Positions 2,387 through 18,899 of a stretch of DNA of 24,663 nucleotides are shown piece after piece. The DNA is taken from positions 1 to 24,663 of the IMG/VR virus record IMGVR_UViG_3300025120_000517. One strand, given 5' to 3'. The translations under genes were made by a program, and so were the position numbers. This DNA comes from a virus. Positions within the stretch are counted from its first letter, which is position 1, and the number at the start of each line of letters is the position of its first letter. A model generated the notes under the pieces. It ran no database searches and had not been told where the DNA came from. It saw nothing but the letters and a program-made list of their open reading frames with translations.

Positions 2387-2773
2387 ATGAGAAATGTAAA
2401 CAGTTTACCAAACGGCCGCCTTGTTGTGGCCTGTTTGAATTGTGGATTCAAGATGGACTTGGCCAAATATGGATGGACAAAAACAGTCTGTGGAAGTTGT
2501 CGAACCATCATCCAGAACCCGATCAATGAAAAGGTTGAAGAGGAAACCAAGAAAACAAACTTGATGCTTTCACTTGTTGATCGTCAGTTCATTGGCACGA
2601 TTTCAACACTTCAAAGTGTAACCAAGTCAAAAGCACTTTCACAGATACTTGAATATAGCCGTCAAGAATACCGGGCGGCCGGTGGTGTGTTGCTGGGACT
2701 AGAAGAAGAAGATTCTTTGGAGAGTACCAAGAAGGCCGTCAAAGGTGTATTCAAGAAGAAGGCCAAGAAATGA
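2387..2773 (+). CDS. Zinc-ribbon protein, 128 residues
   Basis: A pair of CxxC knuckles at Cys16/Cys19 (CLNC) and Cys35/Cys38 (CGSC) forms a classical zinc ribbon in the first 40 residues. The rest is predicted helical, and the last 15 residues are very basic (VFKKKAKK at the end), which suggests nucleic-acid contact. The start is the ATG at 2387, eight bases after GGAG; the longer in-frame start at 2348 would overlap the upstream gene by 28 bases. It overlaps the methyltransferase gene by ATGA. A DNA-binding or regulatory role is inferred, not shown. Confidence 0.65.
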   Translation: MRNVNSLPNGRLVVACLNCGFKMDLAKYGWTKTVCGSCRTIIQNPINEKVEEETKKTNLMLSLVDRQFIGTISTLQSVTKSKALSQILEYSRQEYRAAGGVLLGLEEEDSLESTKKAVKGVFKKKAKK

Positions 2774-4371
2774 AAGATTTTGATTGGATCGACGTTGCAG
2801 ACTTGAAGCCTTGGTTGAAGAATCCCCGGTGGAATGATCAAGCCGTTCAACCGGTGGCCGCTTCCATTGAAGAGTTTGGTTTTGGAGCGCCGATCGTGGT
2901 TCAATCTGGTTCAAATATGATCATTGCAGGCCATACCCGTTTGAAGGCGGCGATCAGACTTGGTTGGAAAAAAGTACCGTGTCGAATACTTGAGATCACC
3001 GATCGAAATGCTGAACGTTTGGCCATAGCCGATAACAAAACGAATGAAATAGCCGATTGGAACGAAGAACACCTTCAAGAAATCATGGCCGCCTTTGAAC
3101 CAGAAGAACTTGAAAACCTTGGTTTCAATGATGAAGAGTTGAATGATCTTCTTGGTGATGGTCAAAACGATGAAGACAACATTGATCAACCAGCTCCAGA
3201 ACCGGCCAAGGCTTTCACAAACCAAACTTTCACGTTGTTGAAAGGTAATTGTTTGGAGAGATTGAAAGATCTTGAAGATGCTTCCATTGATTCTGTTGTT
3301 TGTGATCCACCCTATGAAATTGATTTTATGGGTAAAGGATGGGATCGATCTGGCATCGCTTACAGTGTTGAACTATGGTCTGAATGTTTGAGAGTGTTGA
3401 AGCCCGGCGGCCATTTGATCGCCTTTTGTGCAACAAGAACCGTTCATAGAATGACAGTTGGCATTGAAGACGCTGGTTTTCAAATACGTGATCAGTTGGT
3501 TTGGTGTTATGAATCCGGGTTTCCAAAGTCATTGAATGTTTCAAAGGCGATTGACAAAAATCTTGGAGTTGAAAGTCAGATCATTGAAGAAAAACCAACA
3601 CAAGGTATTGGAGGAAATGGTGTCTTCAATGGTCACAGTGAAAACGCAACTTGGAAGATCACCAAAGCAACCAGTGAAGAAGCCAAACGGTTTGAAGGAT
3701 GGGGTACAGCATTGAAGCCAGCCTTTGAACCAGCTGTATTGGCAAGAAAGCCCGTTGAAGGTACGATCGCCAACAACTTCCTTCTTCATGGTGTTGGAGG
3801 GTTGAACATTCAAAAGACCCGGTTTCCATATGGTGATCCGATCTGGTTTGGTAGTGGTGAAGAAGTCAAGAATGGAAAATACATGAAAAATATCGGTATT
3901 ATGCACGATGATAATTGGGAATCAGATCAAAATCAAAATTGGAACGCTTCAAAAGTTGGAAGATGGCCAGCCAACATTGTAAGATTCAAGAAAGCACAAC
4001 GATCGGAGCGTGAAGAAGGTCTTGATCACTTGGAAGCCAAGAAAGGGTTTGAAGCCGTACACCGTAAAGAAGGATCAGCCGGGGTACAGAATCCACGGGC
4101 CGGAGCTGGTCGAACTTCTGAAAACGTGAAGAACTTTCATCCAACTGTGAAGCCGCTTGAACTCATGCGTTGGCTAGTCCGTTTGGTGACACCAGAAGAA
4201 GGTGTTGTTCTTGATCCTTTTCTTGGAAGCGGTACAACGGCGGCGGCGGCTATGCTTGAAGGGTTCAGTTGTGTTGGTTGTGAAATGACCAGTGACTATT
4301 GGCCGATCATTGAAGGCCGTGTTGAAAATGCTAAAAGACAATATTTAGAGAGGTTTGAAGATGGGACGTAA
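2770..4371 (+). CDS. ParB-like domain / beta-class DNA methyltransferase fusion
   Basis: A 533-residue enzyme that should transfer a methyl group from S-adenosylmethionine to the exocyclic amine of adenine or cytosine in DNA. Residues 1-100 form a ParB/sulfiredoxin-like domain with the signature AGHTRLKAA (GHTR at 54-57). The methylase part has the catalytic DPPY at 179-182 and, far downstream, HPTVKP (457-462) and the SAM-binding DPFLGSGTT (482-490). Motif IV before motif I is the beta-class order seen in CcrM-type enzymes. The roughly 270 residues between them would hold the target recognition region. No restriction enzyme gene is nearby, so it is an orphan phage methylase, perhaps protecting phage DNA. 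The recognition site is not known. Confidence 0.9.
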   Translation: MKDFDWIDVADLKPWLKNPRWNDQAVQPVAASIEEFGFGAPIVVQSGSNMIIAGHTRLKAAIRLGWKKVPCRILEITDRNAERLAIADNKTNEIADWNEEHLQEIMAAFEPEELENLGFNDEELNDLLGDGQNDEDNIDQPAPEPAKAFTNQTFTLLKGNCLERLKDLEDASIDSVVCDPPYEIDFMGKGWDRSGIAYSVELWSECLRVLKPGGHLIAFCATRTVHRMTVGIEDAGFQIRDQLVWCYESGFPKSLNVSKAIDKNLGVESQIIEEKPTQGIGGNGVFNGHSENATWKITKATSEEAKRFEGWGTALKPAFEPAVLARKPVEGTIANNFLLHGVGGLNIQKTRFPYGDPIWFGSGEEVKNGKYMKNIGIMHDDNWESDQNQNWNASKVGRWPANIVRFKKAQRSEREEGLDHLEAKKGFEAVHRKEGSAGVQNPRAGAGRTSENVKNFHPTVKPLELMRWLVRLVTPEEGVVLDPFLGSGTTAAAAMLEGFSCVGCEMTSDYWPIIEGRVENAKRQYLERFEDGT

Positions 4372-6450: not shown

Positions 6451-9360
6451 ATGAAATGGTATCAAAGACTTTTCACACAGATCGGTTTTGCTTCTGAAAC
6501 AAAACAGCTTGGCAAGGTAGACACCAAACCGACTGAGATCCAACACGGCGCTTCATACATTTCAAACGGTGGCCGATCGGCATATAGTCAACTTGGTTCA
6601 CTTGGTGCATATGTTCAACACCCATATGTATATGCGGCCTTGTCTAGGATTTCTCAAGACTTGGCTTCAACTCCTTTGGTACTCATTCAAGGAAAAGGGA
6701 AGAACTCCAAGATCATTGAAGATCACCCGGTGTTGGAGTTGTTGGAAGAACCTTCAACAGGTGTTGACCAGTTTTCATTTCTTGAACAGTTGATCATTGA
6801 TCTGGTAGCCGCCGGAAACGCTTACATTTTGATTCTTGGAGAAACAGAAACACCGGTTTCAATTGTTCGACTTCATCCAGAACAGGTTGGCATTGTAACA
6901 AATGAAAACGGGATCATTGGATACCGATTCGATGCAGATGGCCAAAGCATCTTGTATACAACTGAAAGAGTGATCCATATTAAAAACGCCGGGTGGGCAA
7001 CTGGTATTCAAGGTCTTTACGGTGTTGGAGCTGTACAACCTACACAACAAGAAATCAAAGCCGATCTGAATGTTTCCGGTTTGGTTGAAGTTGCTTCCAA
7101 GAAGGGCCGTCCAGATGTGATTCTTTCACCAAAGAATGAACTTGACGTTTGGCAAGAAGAAACCCGGCGAGATGTTCTTGATCGTTACAATGGAATGATT
7201 GAAGACGGCGGCGCGATCGTTTTGTCTGGTCAAGTTCAAGTGGACGTGGCCAACACTTCACCAAGAGATGTTGAGTTTGCAAAGGTCAAGGAGTTTTCAA
7301 AGTTGGCAATCACGGCCGCTTTTGGAACACCGCTTTCAATACTTGGAGAGGGATCAGCCAACTTCGCAACGGCCCGACAGGAAGCGATCATTCACTGGTC
7401 GAACGTTGAAAAGAGAGGGAAAAAGATCGGGTGGGCTTTGACCAAGATCGCCCGGCGCTTTGATTCAACTCTTCGGTTTGAGTTTGATTATAGTGGCGTT
7501 GAAGCACTTAACGCAATGAGATCAGAACAGATTGAAAGAGTAACGGCCCATATCATGAACGGAATGGAAGCCGGGGCGGCCTATGCTTTTGAAGGACTTG
7601 GTGAAGCGCCAATTGGATCGAATGAACAAAGAACAGAACCAGTTGAAACCCCGGCCTTGGAAGAAGAAGAACAAGTGGCCAGTCTTGCCAACTGGATTGA
7701 ACGATCATACTATGACGATGATGATTCAACAGAAGAAGTTGAAATGAATGTTGAAAAGGCTGAAGATCCTTTGGCCAAATATGGAAGCCTTCAAGAAGCG
7801 TTTGATGCACTCCCAAAAGCAACACAAACAGCATTGACAAACAAAGCCGATGATCACAATGAAGAACACACCGCCAAATCAAAACGAACTTCAAAGTTGA
7901 AGCTGGCCGCCGTCTATTGGAGAGGGATCGGAGCGTACAACACAAACCCCGGTTCAGTTCGACCAAGTGTTAACAGTGCTGAACAGTGGGCAATGGGTAG
8001 AGTGAACAGTTTTCTCTATGCTTTGAGAAATGGCCGGTTCAGAAGTGGAAAGCATGATCAAGACTTGCTTCCAAAAGATCACCCAATGGCCAGCGATGAA
8101 GAAAAGAGTTTTGATCAAATCATTGAAGAAATACTTGGTGGAATGTATACCAAGAAGGGATCAGTTGGAGATGTTGATCCAACAAACTTTCCAGTTGATG
8201 GAGAAAACAAACCAGTTGACCTTGAAAGAAGCCAATGGAAAACGTTTGATCCAAAGTATGCTGAAGATCTCAAGTTGAACCATCCAAGGATCTGGAAAGC
8301 CGGAGGAAACATTGAAGGTAACAACCAATACCGGCGACTGTATCCAATAGCAACCAGACAAAACCAAGAAGCCAAGACAGAAACAGAAGAAATGGCCATT
8401 CGAAAACGTGAAGCGTGGAACGCTAGACACTTTGAAGACGGTTCACAACATGAAGATCCGGAGTTGTCACCAAACCTTTCAAACGTTGCCGGGATAGTTG
8501 CTCAAATCAAATGGTTGGCCGTGGGTTCACTTGGTGAACGTAAAATGAAAGCCGTGTTGAATGAACTGAAAGCCAAACTGGAAGAACAGAAGAGCATGAA
8601 AAGAAAGGCGCGTTGGAATCATTATATCAAAGCCAAGTCAGATCCAGCCGAACGAATGATCCAAAAGGCAACCCGTCAATACTTGTTGGATGCTTCCAGA
8701 AGATACAAGAAAAGAATCCGTAAAAACGTGGTGAAAGGTACAAAGGGGATCGTTGATCTTGGTGAACTTCAAGCAATGGAAGAGGAATCAAGACAGATCT
8801 TCAACACTATTGGCGGCGCTTTTCAACGTGTTTGGAGATTGAATGGTGATTCAACCCTTGATCAAGTCTTCCAAATAGCCGGGATTCCAAAACCCCTTGA
8901 CTTGAACTTTGGAAGCCAAGAACTTTTGTTGGAACTTTCAGAAGAACTTTCCAAACAGATCAGCAGAACAACAGCCAACGCAGTGACACGATCGATCCAG
9001 AACAGTTTGATCAATGGTGAGAGTATCACACAGATCGCCGACAACATAGATCAGATCGCCGCCTTTGGTGTTGGTCGTTCGATGACTATAGCAAGAACAG
9101 AATCAACAAAGGCCTTGAACCGATCAGCCGTTGAAGCATACCGTCAAGCAAGCCAAGAAACAGGTTTGACGATTGAAAAAGAATGGTTGGCAGTACAAGA
9201 CGGAAACACCAGACCAACCCACGGTGATCTGGATGGTGTCAAAGTTGGTATTGATGAACTCTTTGAAATAGATGGTTATACAGCTCTTTCACCAGGTGAC
9301 TTTGGAGAAGCAGAAGAAGACTGTAATTGTCGTTGTACTGTGATCCCGGTTGTGAAATGA
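6451..9360 (+). CDS. Portal / internal domains / MuF head morphogenesis fusion
   Basis: A 969-residue fusion. Residues 1 to about 395 match an HK97-like portal (for example VAAGNAYILILGE and a Gly-rich IQGLYGVGAV segment), which forms the DNA-entry ring. Residues 395-460 are an acidic linker. Residues about 482-545 hold a conserved-looking block (YWRGIGAYNTNPGSVRPSV, then EQWAMGRV and LLPKDHP). Another block follows at about 605-740 (HPRIWKAGGN, then NVAGIVAQIKWL). The C-terminal part is an SPP1 gp7/MuF-type domain with IARTE (880-884), TRPTHGDLDG (from 920) and DCNCRC near the end. In most phages portal and MuF are separate genes. I see no stop or frameshift breaking the reading frame. Confidence 0.9.
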   Translation: MKWYQRLFTQIGFASETKQLGKVDTKPTEIQHGASYISNGGRSAYSQLGSLGAYVQHPYVYAALSRISQDLASTPLVLIQGKGKNSKIIEDHPVLELLEEPSTGVDQFSFLEQLIIDLVAAGNAYILILGETETPVSIVRLHPEQVGIVTNENGIIGYRFDADGQSILYTTERVIHIKNAGWATGIQGLYGVGAVQPTQQEIKADLNVSGLVEVASKKGRPDVILSPKNELDVWQEETRRDVLDRYNGMIEDGGAIVLSGQVQVDVANTSPRDVEFAKVKEFSKLAITAAFGTPLSILGEGSANFATARQEAIIHWSNVEKRGKKIGWALTKIARRFDSTLRFEFDYSGVEALNAMRSEQIERVTAHIMNGMEAGAAYAFEGLGEAPIGSNEQRTEPVETPALEEEEQVASLANWIERSYYDDDDSTEEVEMNVEKAEDPLAKYGSLQEAFDALPKATQTALTNKADDHNEEHTAKSKRTSKLKLAAVYWRGIGAYNTNPGSVRPSVNSAEQWAMGRVNSFLYALRNGRFRSGKHDQDLLPKDHPMASDEEKSFDQIIEEILGGMYTKKGSVGDVDPTNFPVDGENKPVDLERSQWKTFDPKYAEDLKLNHPRIWKAGGNIEGNNQYRRLYPIATRQNQEAKTETEEMAIRKREAWNARHFEDGSQHEDPELSPNLSNVAGIVAQIKWLAVGSLGERKMKAVLNELKAKLEEQKSMKRKARWNHYIKAKSDPAERMIQKATRQYLLDASRRYKKRIRKNVVKGTKGIVDLGELQAMEEESRQIFNTIGGAFQRVWRLNGDSTLDQVFQIAGIPKPLDLNFGSQELLLELSEELSKQISRTTANAVTRSIQNSLINGESITQIADNIDQIAAFGVGRSMTIARTESTKALNRSAVEAYRQASQETGLTIEKEWLAVQDGNTRPTHGDLDGVKVGIDELFEIDGYTALSPGDFGEAEEDCNCRCTVIPVVK

Positions 9361-14786: not shown

Positions 14787-15731
14787 ATGTCAGCAGTTTT
14801 AACCGGTCACGGCGCTTTCATCAAACTTGGAAAAGAAACCACATGGGGAGCGGCCATATCCACAACGATTTCAAATCGAATCAATAGCGTTTCAATCCAG
14901 AAGACACAAGAAAGAAACCCAAAAGCGAACCTTTCCGTTCCATCAAGTGGTGTCCTTGGTGGTCTTTATGATGGATTTTTAACGGTTGAAGGATCTGTTG
15001 AAATGCCTGTAATGTATAGAGGCCTTGGTTTGTTGCTTGAAATGGCACTTGGTAACATTGGCACAACAGGATCTGATCCTTATACACATGTATTTGATCC
15101 AGATCTCACACTTGGATCAGCAACGTTGGAAGTTCAACGGGGTACAGGTATCAACAACCAAATGGAACGTTTCACCGGGGTCAAAGTTTCTTCTTTGTCA
15201 ATCAGTTGTGAAGCCGGTGGTGAAATGGTCGCAACTTTGGAGTTCATTGGAAAGACCAGCTTGGCCAGAGGTGCAAACATTACTTCAAGTTTTGGAACGG
15301 GTACAAGTGTTTTACATTTTCATGCGGGTCAACTCAATTTCAATTCAGTCAACTATGATGTTCGATCTTTTACTTTCAACGTGACAAACAATCTTGAACG
15401 CCGTGATCTTCTTGGTTCAAAGGAAACAGCAGAACCGGCCGTTGGAGATGTAAGAACGATCACTTTGGAAGCAACACTTGACATTGAAAACGATACACTC
15501 CAAACGGCCTTCATAGCCGGGACACAATCAAACGTGACTTTGAACTTCACAAGTGGAGATTCACAGATCCAATTTGACTTGACCAACGCTTTGATCACTG
15601 AACATTCCGATCCTGTTACCGCCTTTGGACGTGTTGAACAAACTGTAACTTTTACCGGTTTGGCAAATGCTACAAATGTTGGTGGAAAGATCACTTTGAT
15701 CAACGATGATTCAACAGGGATAGCCAACTAA
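14787..15731 (+). CDS. Major tail tube protein
   Basis: 314 residues beginning GHGAFIKLGKETTWGAA, the typical opening of the tail tube family in which a strand is followed by a 'KETTWG' segment. Further on are Gly-rich strands (GLYDGFLTVEGSVEMPV) and a second half with repeated strands, which suggests two tube-like domains. It should polymerise into the tube around the tape measure. GGGAG precedes the start. The stop overlaps the chaperone start by one base (TAATG). Confidence 0.85.
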   Translation: MSAVLTGHGAFIKLGKETTWGAAISTTISNRINSVSIQKTQERNPKANLSVPSSGVLGGLYDGFLTVEGSVEMPVMYRGLGLLLEMALGNIGTTGSDPYTHVFDPDLTLGSATLEVQRGTGINNQMERFTGVKVSSLSISCEAGGEMVATLEFIGKTSLARGANITSSFGTGTSVLHFHAGQLNFNSVNYDVRSFTFNVTNNLERRDLLGSKETAEPAVGDVRTITLEATLDIENDTLQTAFIAGTQSNVTLNFTSGDSQIQFDLTNALITEHSDPVTAFGRVEQTVTFTGLANATNVGGKITLINDDSTGIAN

Positions 15732-16243
15732 TGAAGTTTATTCAGAAGATACAAGAAGCAACCACCGCCAAGATTGAAGTCTTTGGTGGTTTGGTTGTTT
15801 TGGAGTGCAAGATCCTTTCACCTTTGGAAGCAGAAGCCGCCGGGCTTGCTTCTTCACTTGTTGCTTCAAGTGTTCTTGATCCAAACCAGTTGAAGAAGAT
15901 AGCAAGAAGAAAACAAATCTTGGAACGTGCTGAATCAGAAGAAGCCGGTGAAGAGGATCTTGAACAACTCCTAAACATGATGCAAGGCTTTGATCCAAAT
16001 AAGTTGATGAAGATCGAAGAGCACCAAAACAAGATCTTGAAACAGGTGGTGATCCGTGCAAGTGAAGACGGCGGTGAAACCTTTGAAGACTTGGTTCTTG
16101 TTGATTCTGTTGAAGATCAAGACGCTGAAAACAACCGACTTTGGATCGGTGCTATACCAAAAGACGACAGAAACAAGATCATGGCCGTTGTGATGAACCA
16201 TCACAAGGAGGTGGTTGATCATCTCCAAACCTTTCAAGGATGA
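15731..16243 (+). CDS. Tail assembly chaperone, G-like (upstream frame)
   Basis: 170 residues, acidic, helical, with a central coiled-coil-like part (residues about 55-100). Position between the tail tube gene and the tape measure gene is that of the lambda G gene. These chaperones coat the tape measure during tail assembly. Its 3' end overlaps an alternative frame that encodes a T-like segment, and a perfect Shine-Dalgarno sequence lies in its last 40 bases, so a fraction of the product may be extended as a G-T fusion. The start overlaps the tube protein stop. Confidence 0.75.
   Translation: MKFIQKIQEATTAKIEVFGGLVVLECKILSPLEAEAAGLASSLVASSVLDPNQLKKIARRKQILERAESEEAGEEDLEQLLNMMQGFDPNKLMKIEEHQNKILKQVVIRASEDGGETFEDLVLVDSVEDQDAENNRLWIGAIPKDDRNKIMAVVMNHHKEVVDHLQTFQG
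16205..16235 (+). promoter_or_regulatory. Candidate recoding site of the G/T chaperone
   Basis: AAGGAGGTG (16205-16213), a nine-base perfect match to the 16S anti-Shine-Dalgarno, lies inside the G gene. TTT-C (16232-16235) follows 18 bases later: a tRNA-Phe on TTT could slip one base to TTC and continue in the T frame. The G stop codon lies at 16241-16243. The T frame is open from 16197. The required shift is +1 (or -2), not the lambda -1. The alternative is a new start at TTG 16215, three bases after AGGAGG. Confidence 0.5.
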
Positions 16244-16454
16244 AGGATGGTTACACCTTTTAGACGCGGTTGGAAGATCCTATGGTATTCCACCCAGTGA
16301 ACTGAGAAAGATGGACTGGAACGATCTTCTTTTCAATTACTATTGTATACAGACAAGAAAATACAGAATCCAGAACACGTTGAAGAAACAAAAATCAAAG
16401 AAGTCTATGGTGTTTCCAAACCTTTCACTGACTGACATGATCGATATATTGTGA
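16215..16454 (+). CDS. T-like extension of tail assembly chaperone (downstream frame)
   Basis: The frame encodes about 79 residues with KDEGWLHLLDAVGRSYG, then IPPSELRKMDWNDLLF and a basic tail. 'PSEL ... DWNDLLF' is the hallmark of the T part of G-T chaperones, in which T binds the tail tube protein while G binds the tape measure. It has no ATG before Met33 of this frame (16311), so it is expressed either by a +1/-2 frameshift from G, giving about 240 residues if the shift is at TTT 16232, or from the TTG at 16215. Its stop is 12 bases before the tape measure start. Confidence 0.7.
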   Translation: MIISKPFKDEGWLHLLDAVGRSYGIPPSELRKMDWNDLLFNYYCIQTRKYRIQNTLKKQKSKKSMVFPNLSLTDMIDIL

Positions 16455-16466
16455 TAAGGTGAAAAC

Positions 16467-18899
16467 ATGGCCAATATTGTAAAATACATACTTGACGTAA
16501 ACACAAGAAAAGCCGTCAAAGGTTTGGACGATGTAGGCGACGAAGCCAAAAAAACTGGTAAAGACTTGGACAAAGCCAAGAAATCTGGTTTGGCTTTTGC
16601 TTCACAACTGGGTGGAGCTGTTACCGGTTTGGCTTCTGGTATCGGTTTGGTGACCGGGGCTTTGTCAACGGTTGTTGGTGCTTTACAAGATGCAGCCGTT
16701 GGTGTATATGATTTCAATAAGTCGGTTGTTGATTCCATAAACGACTTGAACGATCTAAATGCTCAAAGTGCTTTGAGTGCTCAAAGCATCCAAGCGGTTC
16801 AAGTTGCCTTTGAAGGATCTGGTCAAAGTGCAGAACAGGCCGCCGGGTTCATTTCAAAGTTTCCAAGGTTGATGGCAGATCTTGAAGCTGGTTCAAGCCG
16901 TGCAAGTCAAGCCGCCGCCGATCTTGGAATCAAGATCAGAGATCAAGCCGGTGAAATGAAATCAAGTGATACGATTCTAAGAGAAACTATCAAATCACTT
17001 CAACAGATTGAAAACGATACTGAACGATCAACAACGGCCTTCTTGTTGTTTGGAAGAAGCGCCGGCCAGTTGCTTCAAGCCTTTGGGAAAACAAGCGATT
17101 TTGAAAACTTCTTGGCATTGTCAGAAGAGTTTGGAGTAAAGACCGGGCCAGAAGCATCCAACGCGGCGGCAAGATTTCAAGAACTTTTGGCCGCTTTGAA
17201 TGTTGTGGCCGCCGGTACAAAACAGGCTTTCATTGAAGCGATCGGAGGTATTTCTTTTTTCAACGATCTTCTTCTTCGAACGGTGAAGTTGGTGGCAACA
17301 GTTCAAGTTGTAATTCAAGACAATCAAAAGGCGATCGGTGAGTTTTCAACGGCCCTTGGTGGTATTGGATCGGGTATCGTTGATCTATTCCAAACCATGA
17401 TCTTGAGTGTTCAAGGCTTGATCGCTGAAAGCGTGGCTTTCATGGTCATGAAGTTGACCGTTCCATTGTTTATTTTGAATCAGATCGGTTTGATCAGTGA
17501 TGAAACCTTTGAAAAGATTGATCAACTTGGTTTGGAAACTGGAAACGCGGCCCGTGCACTTGAAGAAGTTGTTGTTGGTGTCAATACTACAACTGAAAAC
17601 AGTATATCCGCCGGTCAACGTGTTGAAGAGTTGGTTGAAGGCATCTTGGCCGGGATCAGTGGTGAAGGTAAAGGTCTTGAAGATGACTTGAAAGGCCTTG
17701 AAGATGCAATGAAGAACACCGGAAAAGCGGCCAAAGAGGCACAGATCTCTTTTGGTGGTGAAAATGAGTTTGAAGCGGATGAATTACAAAAGGCAATTGA
17801 AACAATCAACAAGGCCAGCGATTCTTTCAAACCCTTGGAAGCCGCCGCAAAGAAGGCAAGGAATCAAGTTCTTGATCTTGAAAGCGCGTTGGCAACATTT
17901 CAACAAGTTGGTTTGGATACAACAAACGTTGAAGAGCTGTTGAACGTAGCCCGGCAAAATGAAACCGACGCTTTGAACAACCTTGTTGGAGTAACAGAAG
18001 ACGCCACTTTTGGATTTGAAAAGATCGGTGAAACAATCGCTTCTGTATTGGAAGGAATAGCAAAGGCGATCGATCGTATCTCTTCACCAGATTCACTTGT
18101 TGGAAACTTTGGCGATGGATTCAAGAAACTTGGAGCGTTGGCAAGTAAAGCCGGGGAAGAGATCGGAGGTTCAAAAGGTGCTTCTTTGAGTAAAGCCGGG
18201 GCGGCTTTGGGTACAACAGGAGCGATCGCCGGTGGTGTTGGTGCGGTTGTTGTTGCCTTGGAGAAACTTGGACAAAGTACACCAAAAGAACTTGAAGATA
18301 AGTTTGATTCATTCATTACAAACTTTGAAAAAGGGGCGCGAATACTTCCAACATTGATCGCTGAAATCTTGCCAACGTTCATTGGACGTTTGACAGTTGC
18401 AGTTGGTGAAGCCTTCTTGAATCTGATCTTTCAACTACCAAGGGCGATCGCTGATGGAGTAGTTGAAGGTGGTATTGTTTTTGCTGAAGAGTTGAAGAAG
18501 GCTTTGTTTGGATGGTTGGATCGGATCAAAGAGTTCTTTGATAATTTTGGTGAATACTTTTCCAATATCTTCACCCGTGAAGGAAGAAGAGAAAACAGAA
18601 AAAGCATCCTTGGCTTTGAATCCGGTGGTCGATTCATTCCACAACAAAATGGAATCTCTTTCACCGGTGGCCAAGATGGTTTGGCGATGCTTCACCGGGG
18701 TGAATATATAGTTCCAGAGAGTAACAGAAGAAGCCAAGCCGTTGATCGTACAATGCAAGGCATGAACGGCGGCGGTGTTCAAATCGTTGTCAATGCTGAA
18801 ATTGTTGAACAATCGGCAATTGATGAACTTGTAAGAAAAATAGAACAACGCTTTCAAGGCTTTGGCGGTGGTCGTTCAACGTTGTTTGGTGGGGTGTAG
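16467..18899 (+). CDS. Tail tape measure protein
   Basis: 810 residues, rich in Ala, Gly, Leu and Glu, with a coiled-coil N-terminus (about 15-45), hydrophobic Gly-rich segments (about 45-80, 240-350 and 580-620) and charged helices between them. The C-terminus has the common tape measure signature FESGGRFIP, followed by GLAMLHRGEYIVPE. It sets the tail length and is ejected at infection, when the hydrophobic segments may help cross the inner membrane. At about 1.5 angstrom per residue it suggests a tail near 120 nm. AAGGTG precedes the ATG. No lysozyme or peptidase domain was seen. Confidence 0.9.
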   Translation: MANIVKYILDVNTRKAVKGLDDVGDEAKKTGKDLDKAKKSGLAFASQLGGAVTGLASGIGLVTGALSTVVGALQDAAVGVYDFNKSVVDSINDLNDLNAQSALSAQSIQAVQVAFEGSGQSAEQAAGFISKFPRLMADLEAGSSRASQAAADLGIKIRDQAGEMKSSDTILRETIKSLQQIENDTERSTTAFLLFGRSAGQLLQAFGKTSDFENFLALSEEFGVKTGPEASNAAARFQELLAALNVVAAGTKQAFIEAIGGISFFNDLLLRTVKLVATVQVVIQDNQKAIGEFSTALGGIGSGIVDLFQTMILSVQGLIAESVAFMVMKLTVPLFILNQIGLISDETFEKIDQLGLETGNAARALEEVVVGVNTTTENSISAGQRVEELVEGILAGISGEGKGLEDDLKGLEDAMKNTGKAAKEAQISFGGENEFEADELQKAIETINKASDSFKPLEAAAKKARNQVLDLESALATFQQVGLDTTNVEELLNVARQNETDALNNLVGVTEDATFGFEKIGETIASVLEGIAKAIDRISSPDSLVGNFGDGFKKLGALASKAGEEIGGSKGASLSKAGAALGTTGAIAGGVGAVVVALEKLGQSTPKELEDKFDSFITNFEKGARILPTLIAEILPTFIGRLTVAVGEAFLNLIFQLPRAIADGVVEGGIVFAEELKKALFGWLDRIKEFFDNFGEYFSNIFTREGRRENRKSILGFESGGRFIPQQNGISFTGGQDGLAMLHRGEYIVPESNRRSQAVDRTMQGMNGGGVQIVVNAEIVEQSAIDELVRKIEQRFQGFGGGRSTLFGGV

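What the first reader, a model, noticed from the sequence alone, without database searches (positions are those of the whole stretch)
16197..16454. G/T tail chaperone overlap that needs a +1 (or -2) shift and carries a perfect internal Shine-Dalgarno
The T-like frame has no ATG at its start and overlaps G by 47 bases. It is +1 relative to G, unlike the usual lambda -1 slippery heptamer, and no such heptamer is seen. AAGGAGGTG (16205-16213) matches the anti-Shine-Dalgarno over nine bases. TTT-C at 16232 allows a clean +1 slip of tRNA-Phe, giving ...HLQTF-KDEGWLHLL. A ribosome binding site this strong inside a gene is either a recoding stimulator or a start site for TTG 16215.
Basis: partly seen in the sequence, partly recalled or inferred. 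Interest (0 to 1): 0.65.

Follow-up and report, generated by a model that had tools for sequence, protein, structure and literature searches.

The report
Conserved +1 frameshift in tail chaperone
In a large group of uncultivated, mostly marine tailed viruses, ribosomes appear to skip one base at a fixed UUU-C site to fuse two overlapping tail-assembly genes, and the site is preceded by a conserved ribosome-binding-like sequence and often a small RNA hairpin, but it has no structure after it as phage frameshift sites often do.

Summary
G (15731-16243) and T (open from 16197) overlap by 47 nt, and T is in the +1 frame. In 72 loci (window plus 71 related, down to about 15-25% identity) T is always +1 of G. 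In 70 of 71 locatable sites the zero-frame codons at the junction are TTT followed by C (UUU_CGN in 49, UUU_CAR in 17). TTG 16215 is not conserved, and in 16 loci T has no ATG/GTG/TTG from its upstream stop to 25 codons past the site, so a separate start cannot be general. A -2 shift allows no re-pairing. GGAGG lies 20 nt (23 in some clades) before UUU. Glu there is GAG in 48/48, whereas Glu codons elsewhere in these genes are about half GAA. The 27 nt before UUU also fold better than codon-shuffled controls (mean z -1.4 to -1.5); nothing downstream does. In the window the 'perfect Shine-Dalgarno' is the 5' arm of an 8-bp hairpin ending 5 nt before UUU. The slip motif is the UUU_CGN of influenza PA-X and amalgaviruses, and it also sits in haloarchaeal virus chaperones (HSTV-2, HRTV-8, HSTV-4). 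I file it as a new variant of a known kind. How the upstream element works is inferred, not shown.

The parts
15731..16243 (+). G-like tail assembly chaperone ORF (zero frame), ends HLQTFQG*
   Evidence: ORF; lies between a major tail protein (phrog_290, 3.5e-34) and a tape measure (phrog_8125); AF2 model pLDDT 81.7 matches the viral model named 'Tail assembly chaperone [Mycobacterium phage Madruga]' at E 1.8e-4
16197..16454 (+). T-like frame, +1 of G; product starts in effect at TTC 16233 (FKDEGWLHLLDAVGRSYG...)
   Evidence: T HMM finds the +1 frame in all 65 HMM-paired loci, plus 7 added by hand
16205..16213 (+). SD-like AAGGAGGTG; GGAGG core 16207-16211, 20 nt before TTT
   Evidence: GGAGG at 20 nt (22-23 in some clades); Glu codon GAG 48/48; preceding residue K/Q/E/R/M/T/G with third base G in 47 of 51
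16207..16226 (+). predicted hairpin GGAGGUGG-UUGA-UCAUCUCC ending 5 nt before the slip codon
   Evidence: fold -10.4 kcal/mol, z -2.7; equivalent hairpins in L005 and L009 with G-U to G-C changes; class-wide MFE test
16232..16235 (+). slip site UUU_C (P-site tRNA-Phe moves from UUU to UUC); zero-frame A-site codon CAA, +1 codon AAG
16241..16243 (+). G stop codon TGA, two sense codons after UUU
16467..18899 (+). tape measure protein (downstream landmark)
14787..15731 (+). major tail protein (upstream landmark, used to find relatives)

Best explanation
This is a programmed +1 ribosomal frameshift that makes the G-T tail assembly chaperone fusion. Most ribosomes read G to TGA 16241. A fraction pause with peptidyl-tRNA-Phe on UUU 16232-16234, re-pair one base forward on UUC (a better fit for the GAA anticodon), take AAG instead of CAA in the A site and go on through T, giving ...HLQTF-KDEGWLHLL... 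(inferred from comparison). The upstream signal, a GGAGG element plus a small hairpin that can re-form just behind the ribosome about 5 nt from the slip codon, probably pushes in the forward direction, as a close-spaced SD duplex does in prfB (inferred). G would coat the tape measure and the scarce G-T would recruit the tail tube protein, as in lambda (established for lambda, inferred here).
For: T is +1 of G in 72/72 loci. UUU_C sits at the junction in 70 of 71 located sites, while the next residue varies among Arg/Gln/Leu/Pro yet always begins with C in those 70; AGA/AGG make 27% of Arg codons elsewhere in G but 0% here. Only one in-frame UUU_C occurs in each overlap. In L077 and L085 the overlap is 17 nt and UUU_C is the only codon in it that re-pairs at +1. 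16 loci have no ATG/GTG/TTG from the upstream stop of T to 25 codons past the site, and 22 have no start-like codon at all before the site. F is the one invariant column of the 24-protein fusion alignment, with F-A in most rows. Haloarchaeal chaperones annotated as joined reading frames share UUU_CGC. SD element: stronger than codon-shuffled controls with the protein held fixed (Fisher 2e-4 for 38 representatives, 0.012 for 24, 0.035 for 12). Hairpin: 27-nt MFE mean z -1.43/-1.52, Fisher 3e-11/8e-9, Wilcoxon 2.5e-5; it survives fixing the SD codons (z -1.02/-1.21) and is absent downstream (z about -0.1) and at most other upstream positions. Upstream hairpins and SD duplexes next to the E site stimulate +1 shifting on 70S ribosomes (PMC6321510) and a hairpin does so in yeast (PMC3639245).
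Against: No peptide or reporter data. The 13-locus clade L074-L092 has SD and UUU_CAA but little hairpin. RNAalifold finds no shared helix, and the best register is not above shuffles for cells paired. A helix-length test is only p = 0.06. A 20-nt SD spacing is outside the windows known to act. CGC/CGU are not rare codons in most bacteria, so why the A site is slow is not explained. In the L010/L027 clade a GTG or ATG 7-10 codons into T has a GGAG nearby, so a second, shorter T product cannot be excluded there.
Confidence: 0.92

Rival explanations
1. T is translated independently from TTG 16215, or from ATC 16218/16221, using the AAGGAGGTG as its ribosome binding site.
For: The SD is perfect over nine bases and TTG 16215 follows it; ATC 16218 stands at a near-ideal spacing of 6 nt.
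Against: L004 has TAG and L005 TGA in the T frame at this place, and L020 has no start-like codon before the site. 22 loci have no NTG/ATN codon in T before the site and 16 have no ATG/GTG/TTG even 25 codons beyond it, although the SD is present in most of them. TTG 16215 begins one base after the 9-nt SD match, too close for normal initiation.
Confidence: 0.04
2. The frame change is -2 rather than +1 (as annotated for HSTV-4), by backward slippage at the same place.
Against: The codon before UUU is TCC, CGA, ACC, ACG, ATG, GGG, AGG, TCG, ACT, CGG, ACA, AAC or GCC, so no common -2 re-pairing exists. What is invariant is UUU followed by C, which serves only a forward step.
Confidence: 0.03
3. 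The upstream elements are by-products of protein conservation (K/Q-E-A helix of G) and have no role; UUU_C alone gives low-level +1 shifting, as in PA-X.
For: PA-X works without evident stimulators (PMC5009743); the H-K-E-A stretch is conserved as protein; there is no shared helix register.
Against: The Glu codon is GAG in 48/48 with GAA about half elsewhere; the residue before it varies over seven amino acids with third base G; L055/L056 keep AGGAGG-like DNA in another codon register, and L114 has AGGGGG at 20 nt. The hairpin signal exceeds codon-shuffled controls only in this 27-nt stretch.
Confidence: 0.3
4. Sequencing or assembly error, or a decayed gene.
For: Metagenomic contigs are unreviewed.
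Against: The same +1 relation appears in 72 diverged loci, with conserved reading frames on both sides.
Confidence: 0.01

Closest known systems
Lambda-type G/G-T tail assembly chaperone frameshift (reviewed in PMC5009743)
   Same: Two overlapping frames between major tail protein and tape measure; shift near the 3' end of G makes a C-terminal T extension.
   Different: Direction is +1 rather than -1; slip site UUU_C rather than a heptamer; signals lie upstream only.
Haloarchaeal virus chaperones (HSTV-2, HRTV-8, HSTV-4; Hafunaviridae)
   Same: Cultured viruses with a chaperone pair in +1 relation and UUU_CGC at the junction; HSTV-2 described as very likely +1 in PMC5009743.
   Different: No close sequence relation found; the purine-rich GGAG element, where present, is about 11 nt from UUU rather than 20-23; HSTV-4 is annotated as -2.
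UUU_CGN +1 motif of influenza A PA-X and plant amalgaviruses (PMC5052127)
   Same: Identical slip motif and direction; A-site codon mostly CGN.
   Different: Eukaryotic ribosomes and RNA viruses; no upstream SD or hairpin; here CAA/CAG (and rarely CUC, CCA) also occur in the A site.
prfB (RF2) +1 frameshift, CUU_UGA_C with SD 3 nt upstream
   Same: SD-like element upstream of a pyrimidine P-site codon, +1 direction; relative L105 has GGGAGG-UCC-CUU_C, a prfB-like arrangement.
   Different: Sense codon, not a stop, in the A site; SD at 20-23 nt with a hairpin in the gap; not autoregulatory in any evident way.
Upstream refolding hairpins that stimulate +1 shifting (PMC3639245, PMC6321510)
   Same: Hairpin next to the E site with effect in the +1 direction.
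   Different: Those are engineered constructs or a coronavirus -1 attenuator; here the hairpin would be a natural +1 stimulator, which is not shown.
Listeria phages PSA, A118, A500 +1 sites (PMC5009743)
   Same: Phage structural genes using +1 shifting.
   Different: Capsid or tail shaft genes; in PSA the shift is on a proline codon before a pseudoknot or stop; not the chaperone pair.

Membership tests
Lambda-type G/G-T tail assembly chaperone | Overlapping ORF pair between major tail protein and tape measure genes | tested here: met
   phrog_290 protein at 14787-15731, pair at 15731-16454, tape measure at 16467; same order in relatives
Lambda-type G/G-T tail assembly chaperone | T has no start of its own and is reached by frameshift from G | tested here: met
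   16 loci with no ATG/GTG/TTG from T opening to 25 codons past the site; 72/72 in the same relative frame
Lambda-type G/G-T tail assembly chaperone | -1 shift on a slippery heptamer | tested here: not met
   T is +1 of G in all loci
Lambda-type G/G-T tail assembly chaperone | Sequence or fold relation to known chaperones | tested here: inconclusive
   No PHROG or Pfam family passes; Foldseek hit to a mycobacteriophage chaperone model at E 1.8e-4 but TM-score about 0.4; no PDB match
Lambda-type G/G-T tail assembly chaperone | G binds tape measure, T binds tube protein; neither in the virion | not testable with these tools
   -
UUU_CGN +1 frameshift class | UUU codon in frame followed by C, at the start of a conserved +1 ORF overlap | tested here: met
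   70 of 71 located sites; unique in each overlap
UUU_CGN +1 frameshift class | CGN in the A site | tested here: inconclusive
   CGN in 49 of 71 loci; the window itself has CAA
UUU_CGN +1 frameshift class | Measured +1 product | not testable with these tools
   -
prfB-type SD-stimulated +1 shift | SD about 3 nt before the P-site codon | tested here: not met
   Spacing 20 nt (22-23 in some clades) in almost all loci; met only in the single locus L105
prfB-type SD-stimulated +1 shift | Stop codon in the zero-frame A site | tested here: not met
   A-site codon CGN, CAR, CTC, CCA or TTC

The most novel reading that the evidence does not exclude
A conserved module (GGAGG at about 20 nt plus an E-site-adjacent hairpin plus UUU_C) drives +1 recoding in a broad lineage of uncultivated tailed viruses. 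It would be a natural phage example of an upstream hairpin acting as a +1 stimulator, and of an SD-like element working from a spacing outside both known windows.
Probability: 0.45. Interest if true: 0.68.

Novelty: new variant of a known kind. Interest (0 to 1): 0.52.

Why it matters
PRFect's authors state that no general motif has been identified for forward frameshifts (PMC10885494). Here one motif, UUU_C, recurs at the chaperone junction of very diverged bacterial-type and haloarchaeal tailed viruses, the same motif used by influenza PA-X. That gives a simple rule for annotating the T gene, which is otherwise missed or called -2. The upstream-only signals make a concrete test system for how mRNA duplexes in the ribosome exit channel set the direction of slippage.

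Tried and rejected
Independent start of T at TTG/ATC: rejected from relatives. -2 slippage: rejected for lack of any conserved re-pairing. Downstream stimulatory structure: none (window z -0.5). One conserved helix for all members: not found. Transcriptional slippage: no homopolymer run at the junction. Cultured relatives by G or tail protein: none for G; only weak hits of the tail protein to Nonagvirus and related phages, and Nonagvirus JenP1 is in a -1 relation. Known families for G or T: none significant; DUF7391 only at E 0.012 or worse, in 7 of 33 members. Papers: no held paper names UUU_C in phage chaperones; Xu 2004 and Sencilo 2013 are known only through the review (PMC5009743), and a look-up for the latter failed.

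Full report
What is there. The window is a 24.7-kb viral contig; its nearest relatives come from IMG/VR. G is 15731-16243 and the T frame is open 16197-16454 in the +1 frame, between a major tail protein of family phrog_290 and a tape measure protein. AAGGAGGTG occurs once in the window, and GGAGG is strongly depleted there (7 seen, about 31 expected), so one sitting exactly at the frame junction stands out.

Relatives. G, T and the tail protein were used as queries against IMG/VR and GTDB genomes. After iterating HMMs for G and T, 65 distinct loci (the window among them) held both, all with T in the +1 frame. Seven more distant loci were added by eye, including two MAG contigs labelled Verrucomicrobiales and Anaerolineaceae. 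The 72 loci fall into 39, 25 and 13 clusters at 80, 60 and 40% identity of G. Cultured phages in INPHARED have no relative of G.

The slip site. In 70 of 71 located sites the zero-frame codon at the junction is TTT and the next base is C: CGC 35, CAA 16, CGT 10, CGA 4, CTC 3, CAG 1, CCA 1. One (L131) has TTT_T instead. L105, the only locus without an in-frame TTT at the junction, has CTT_C three bases after GGGAGG, which looks like prfB. In other Phe codons of these genes TTT_C makes 6.5%. The amino acid after Phe changes (R, Q, L, P) but its codon always starts with C in those 70 loci; AGA/AGG, 27% of Arg codons elsewhere in G, are never used. The codon before TTT takes 13 forms, so no backward re-pairing is shared. 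In L077 and L085 the two frames overlap by only 17 nt, and UUU_C is the only place in that overlap where a P-site tRNA can re-pair at +1. The fused proteins align through the junction with F as the one invariant residue.

No separate start. TTG 16215 is replaced by a stop in L004 and lost in L005, L009 and L020. Of 71 loci, 22 have no NTG or ATN codon in T before the site, and 16 have no ATG, GTG or TTG from the opening of the frame to 25 codons past the site. In the L010/L027 clade a later GTG/ATG with a GGAG nearby could add a shorter T, which I cannot exclude.

The SD-like element. In the 51 loci that align without gaps the SD codons are NNG GAG in most: the Glu codon is GAG in 48 of 48 although GAA is 52% of Glu codons in the bodies of these genes, and the residue before it is K, Q, E, R, M, T or G with third base G in 47 of 51. 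GGAGG ends 20 nt before UUU, or 22-23 in other clades, and L055/L056 keep it in another codon register. With the protein fixed and synonymous codons shuffled, pairing to the anti-SD is stronger than expected (Fisher 2e-4, 0.012 and 0.035 for 38, 24 and 12 representatives). This is significant but modest, because K-E-A codons give GGAGG often by chance. The spacing is outside what is known: next to the E site for +1 and 8-11 nt for -1 (PMC6321510).

The hairpin. In the window GGAGGUGG pairs with UCAUCUCC around a UUGA loop (16207-16226), ending 5 nt before UUU (-10.4 kcal/mol, z -2.7). L005 and L009 keep eight possible pairs with changes such as G-U to G-C; L033, L034, L041-L047, L051 and L064 form other hairpins in the same place. 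Against codon-shuffled controls the 27 nt before UUU fold better (mean z -1.43 and -1.52, Fisher 3e-11 and 8e-9, Wilcoxon 2.5e-5), also with the SD codons held fixed (z -1.02 and -1.21). Downstream windows give z about -0.1 and other upstream windows -0.6 to +0.3. Against this: no single helix register is shared (RNAalifold finds none; cells paired 56.8% against 55.6% in shuffles, though above all slid versions), a helix-length test gives only p = 0.06, and the UUU_CAA clade L074-L092 has hardly any hairpin. Representatives are also not independent. I hold the hairpin as likely but not proven.

Mechanism. Shown by comparison: a +1 shift at UUU_C joins G to T. Inferred: tRNA-Phe gains a Watson-Crick third pair on UUC; the hairpin, and perhaps the SD, form a duplex behind the E site that favours forward movement. 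Upstream hairpins and SD duplexes do this on 70S ribosomes at CUU_UGA (PMC6321510), and a hairpin did so in yeast at CUU_CGG_C, with the effect of an upstream hairpin (measured as -1 attenuation) halved when spacing grew from 2 to 5 nt (PMC3639245). Why the A site is slow at CGC or CAA, and what GGAGG does at 20 nt, is open.

Comparison with the known. +1 chaperone shifting is already suspected in HSTV-2 (PMC5009743). I read that record: its junction is AAG TCC TTT CGC, and HRTV-8 and HSTV-4 have AAG AAG or GAG AAG before TTT CGC, the last annotated as -2. So UUU_CGC recurs in a second, very distant set of tailed viruses. The motif equals UUU_CGN of PA-X and amalgaviruses (PMC5052127). G and T match no PHROG or Pfam family; the G model matches a mycobacteriophage chaperone model at E 1.8e-4, which together with gene order supports the chaperone identity.

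Verdict. Real, and a new variant of a known kind. The +1 site is near certain by comparison; the upstream signals are the open and more interesting part.

Noticed in passing
L134 14982-15813 (HSTV-2), L135 583-1366 (HRTV-8), L136 583-1363 (HSTV-4): Haloarchaeal virus chaperones share TTT_CGC at the junction; HSTV-4 is annotated as -2, but the site fits +1.
   Followed up: partly
L105 4990-5022: The only relative without an in-frame TTT at the junction has GGGAGG-TCC-CTT_C, a prfB-like spacing of 3 nt; a single contig, no second copy found.
   Followed up: partly
L131 5470-5509: A MAG contig labelled Verrucomicrobiales has TTT_T instead of TTT_C, with GGAGG still at 20 nt.
   Followed up: no
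window, whole: GGAGG is strongly depleted (7 seen, about 31 expected) and all seven copies are inside genes; gene starts seem to use weaker sites such as AAGGTG.
   Followed up: partly
window 6451-9360: One 969-aa ORF matches portal proteins in its N-terminal half and head morphogenesis/minor head proteins at its C-terminus (phrog_2662, phrog_2468): an apparent fusion.
   Followed up: no
window 2770-4371: A 533-aa ORF combines a ParB-like domain with a DNA methyltransferase (phrog_620, phrog_67).
   Followed up: no
L125, L126, L127, L128: Distant loci found by tail protein similarity appear to have chaperone pairs in the -1 relation, unlike the +1 group.
   Followed up: no
window 15731-16240 and relatives: Weak matches of G to Pfam DUF7391 in 7 of 33 members (best E 0.012, below cut-off).
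   Followed up: no
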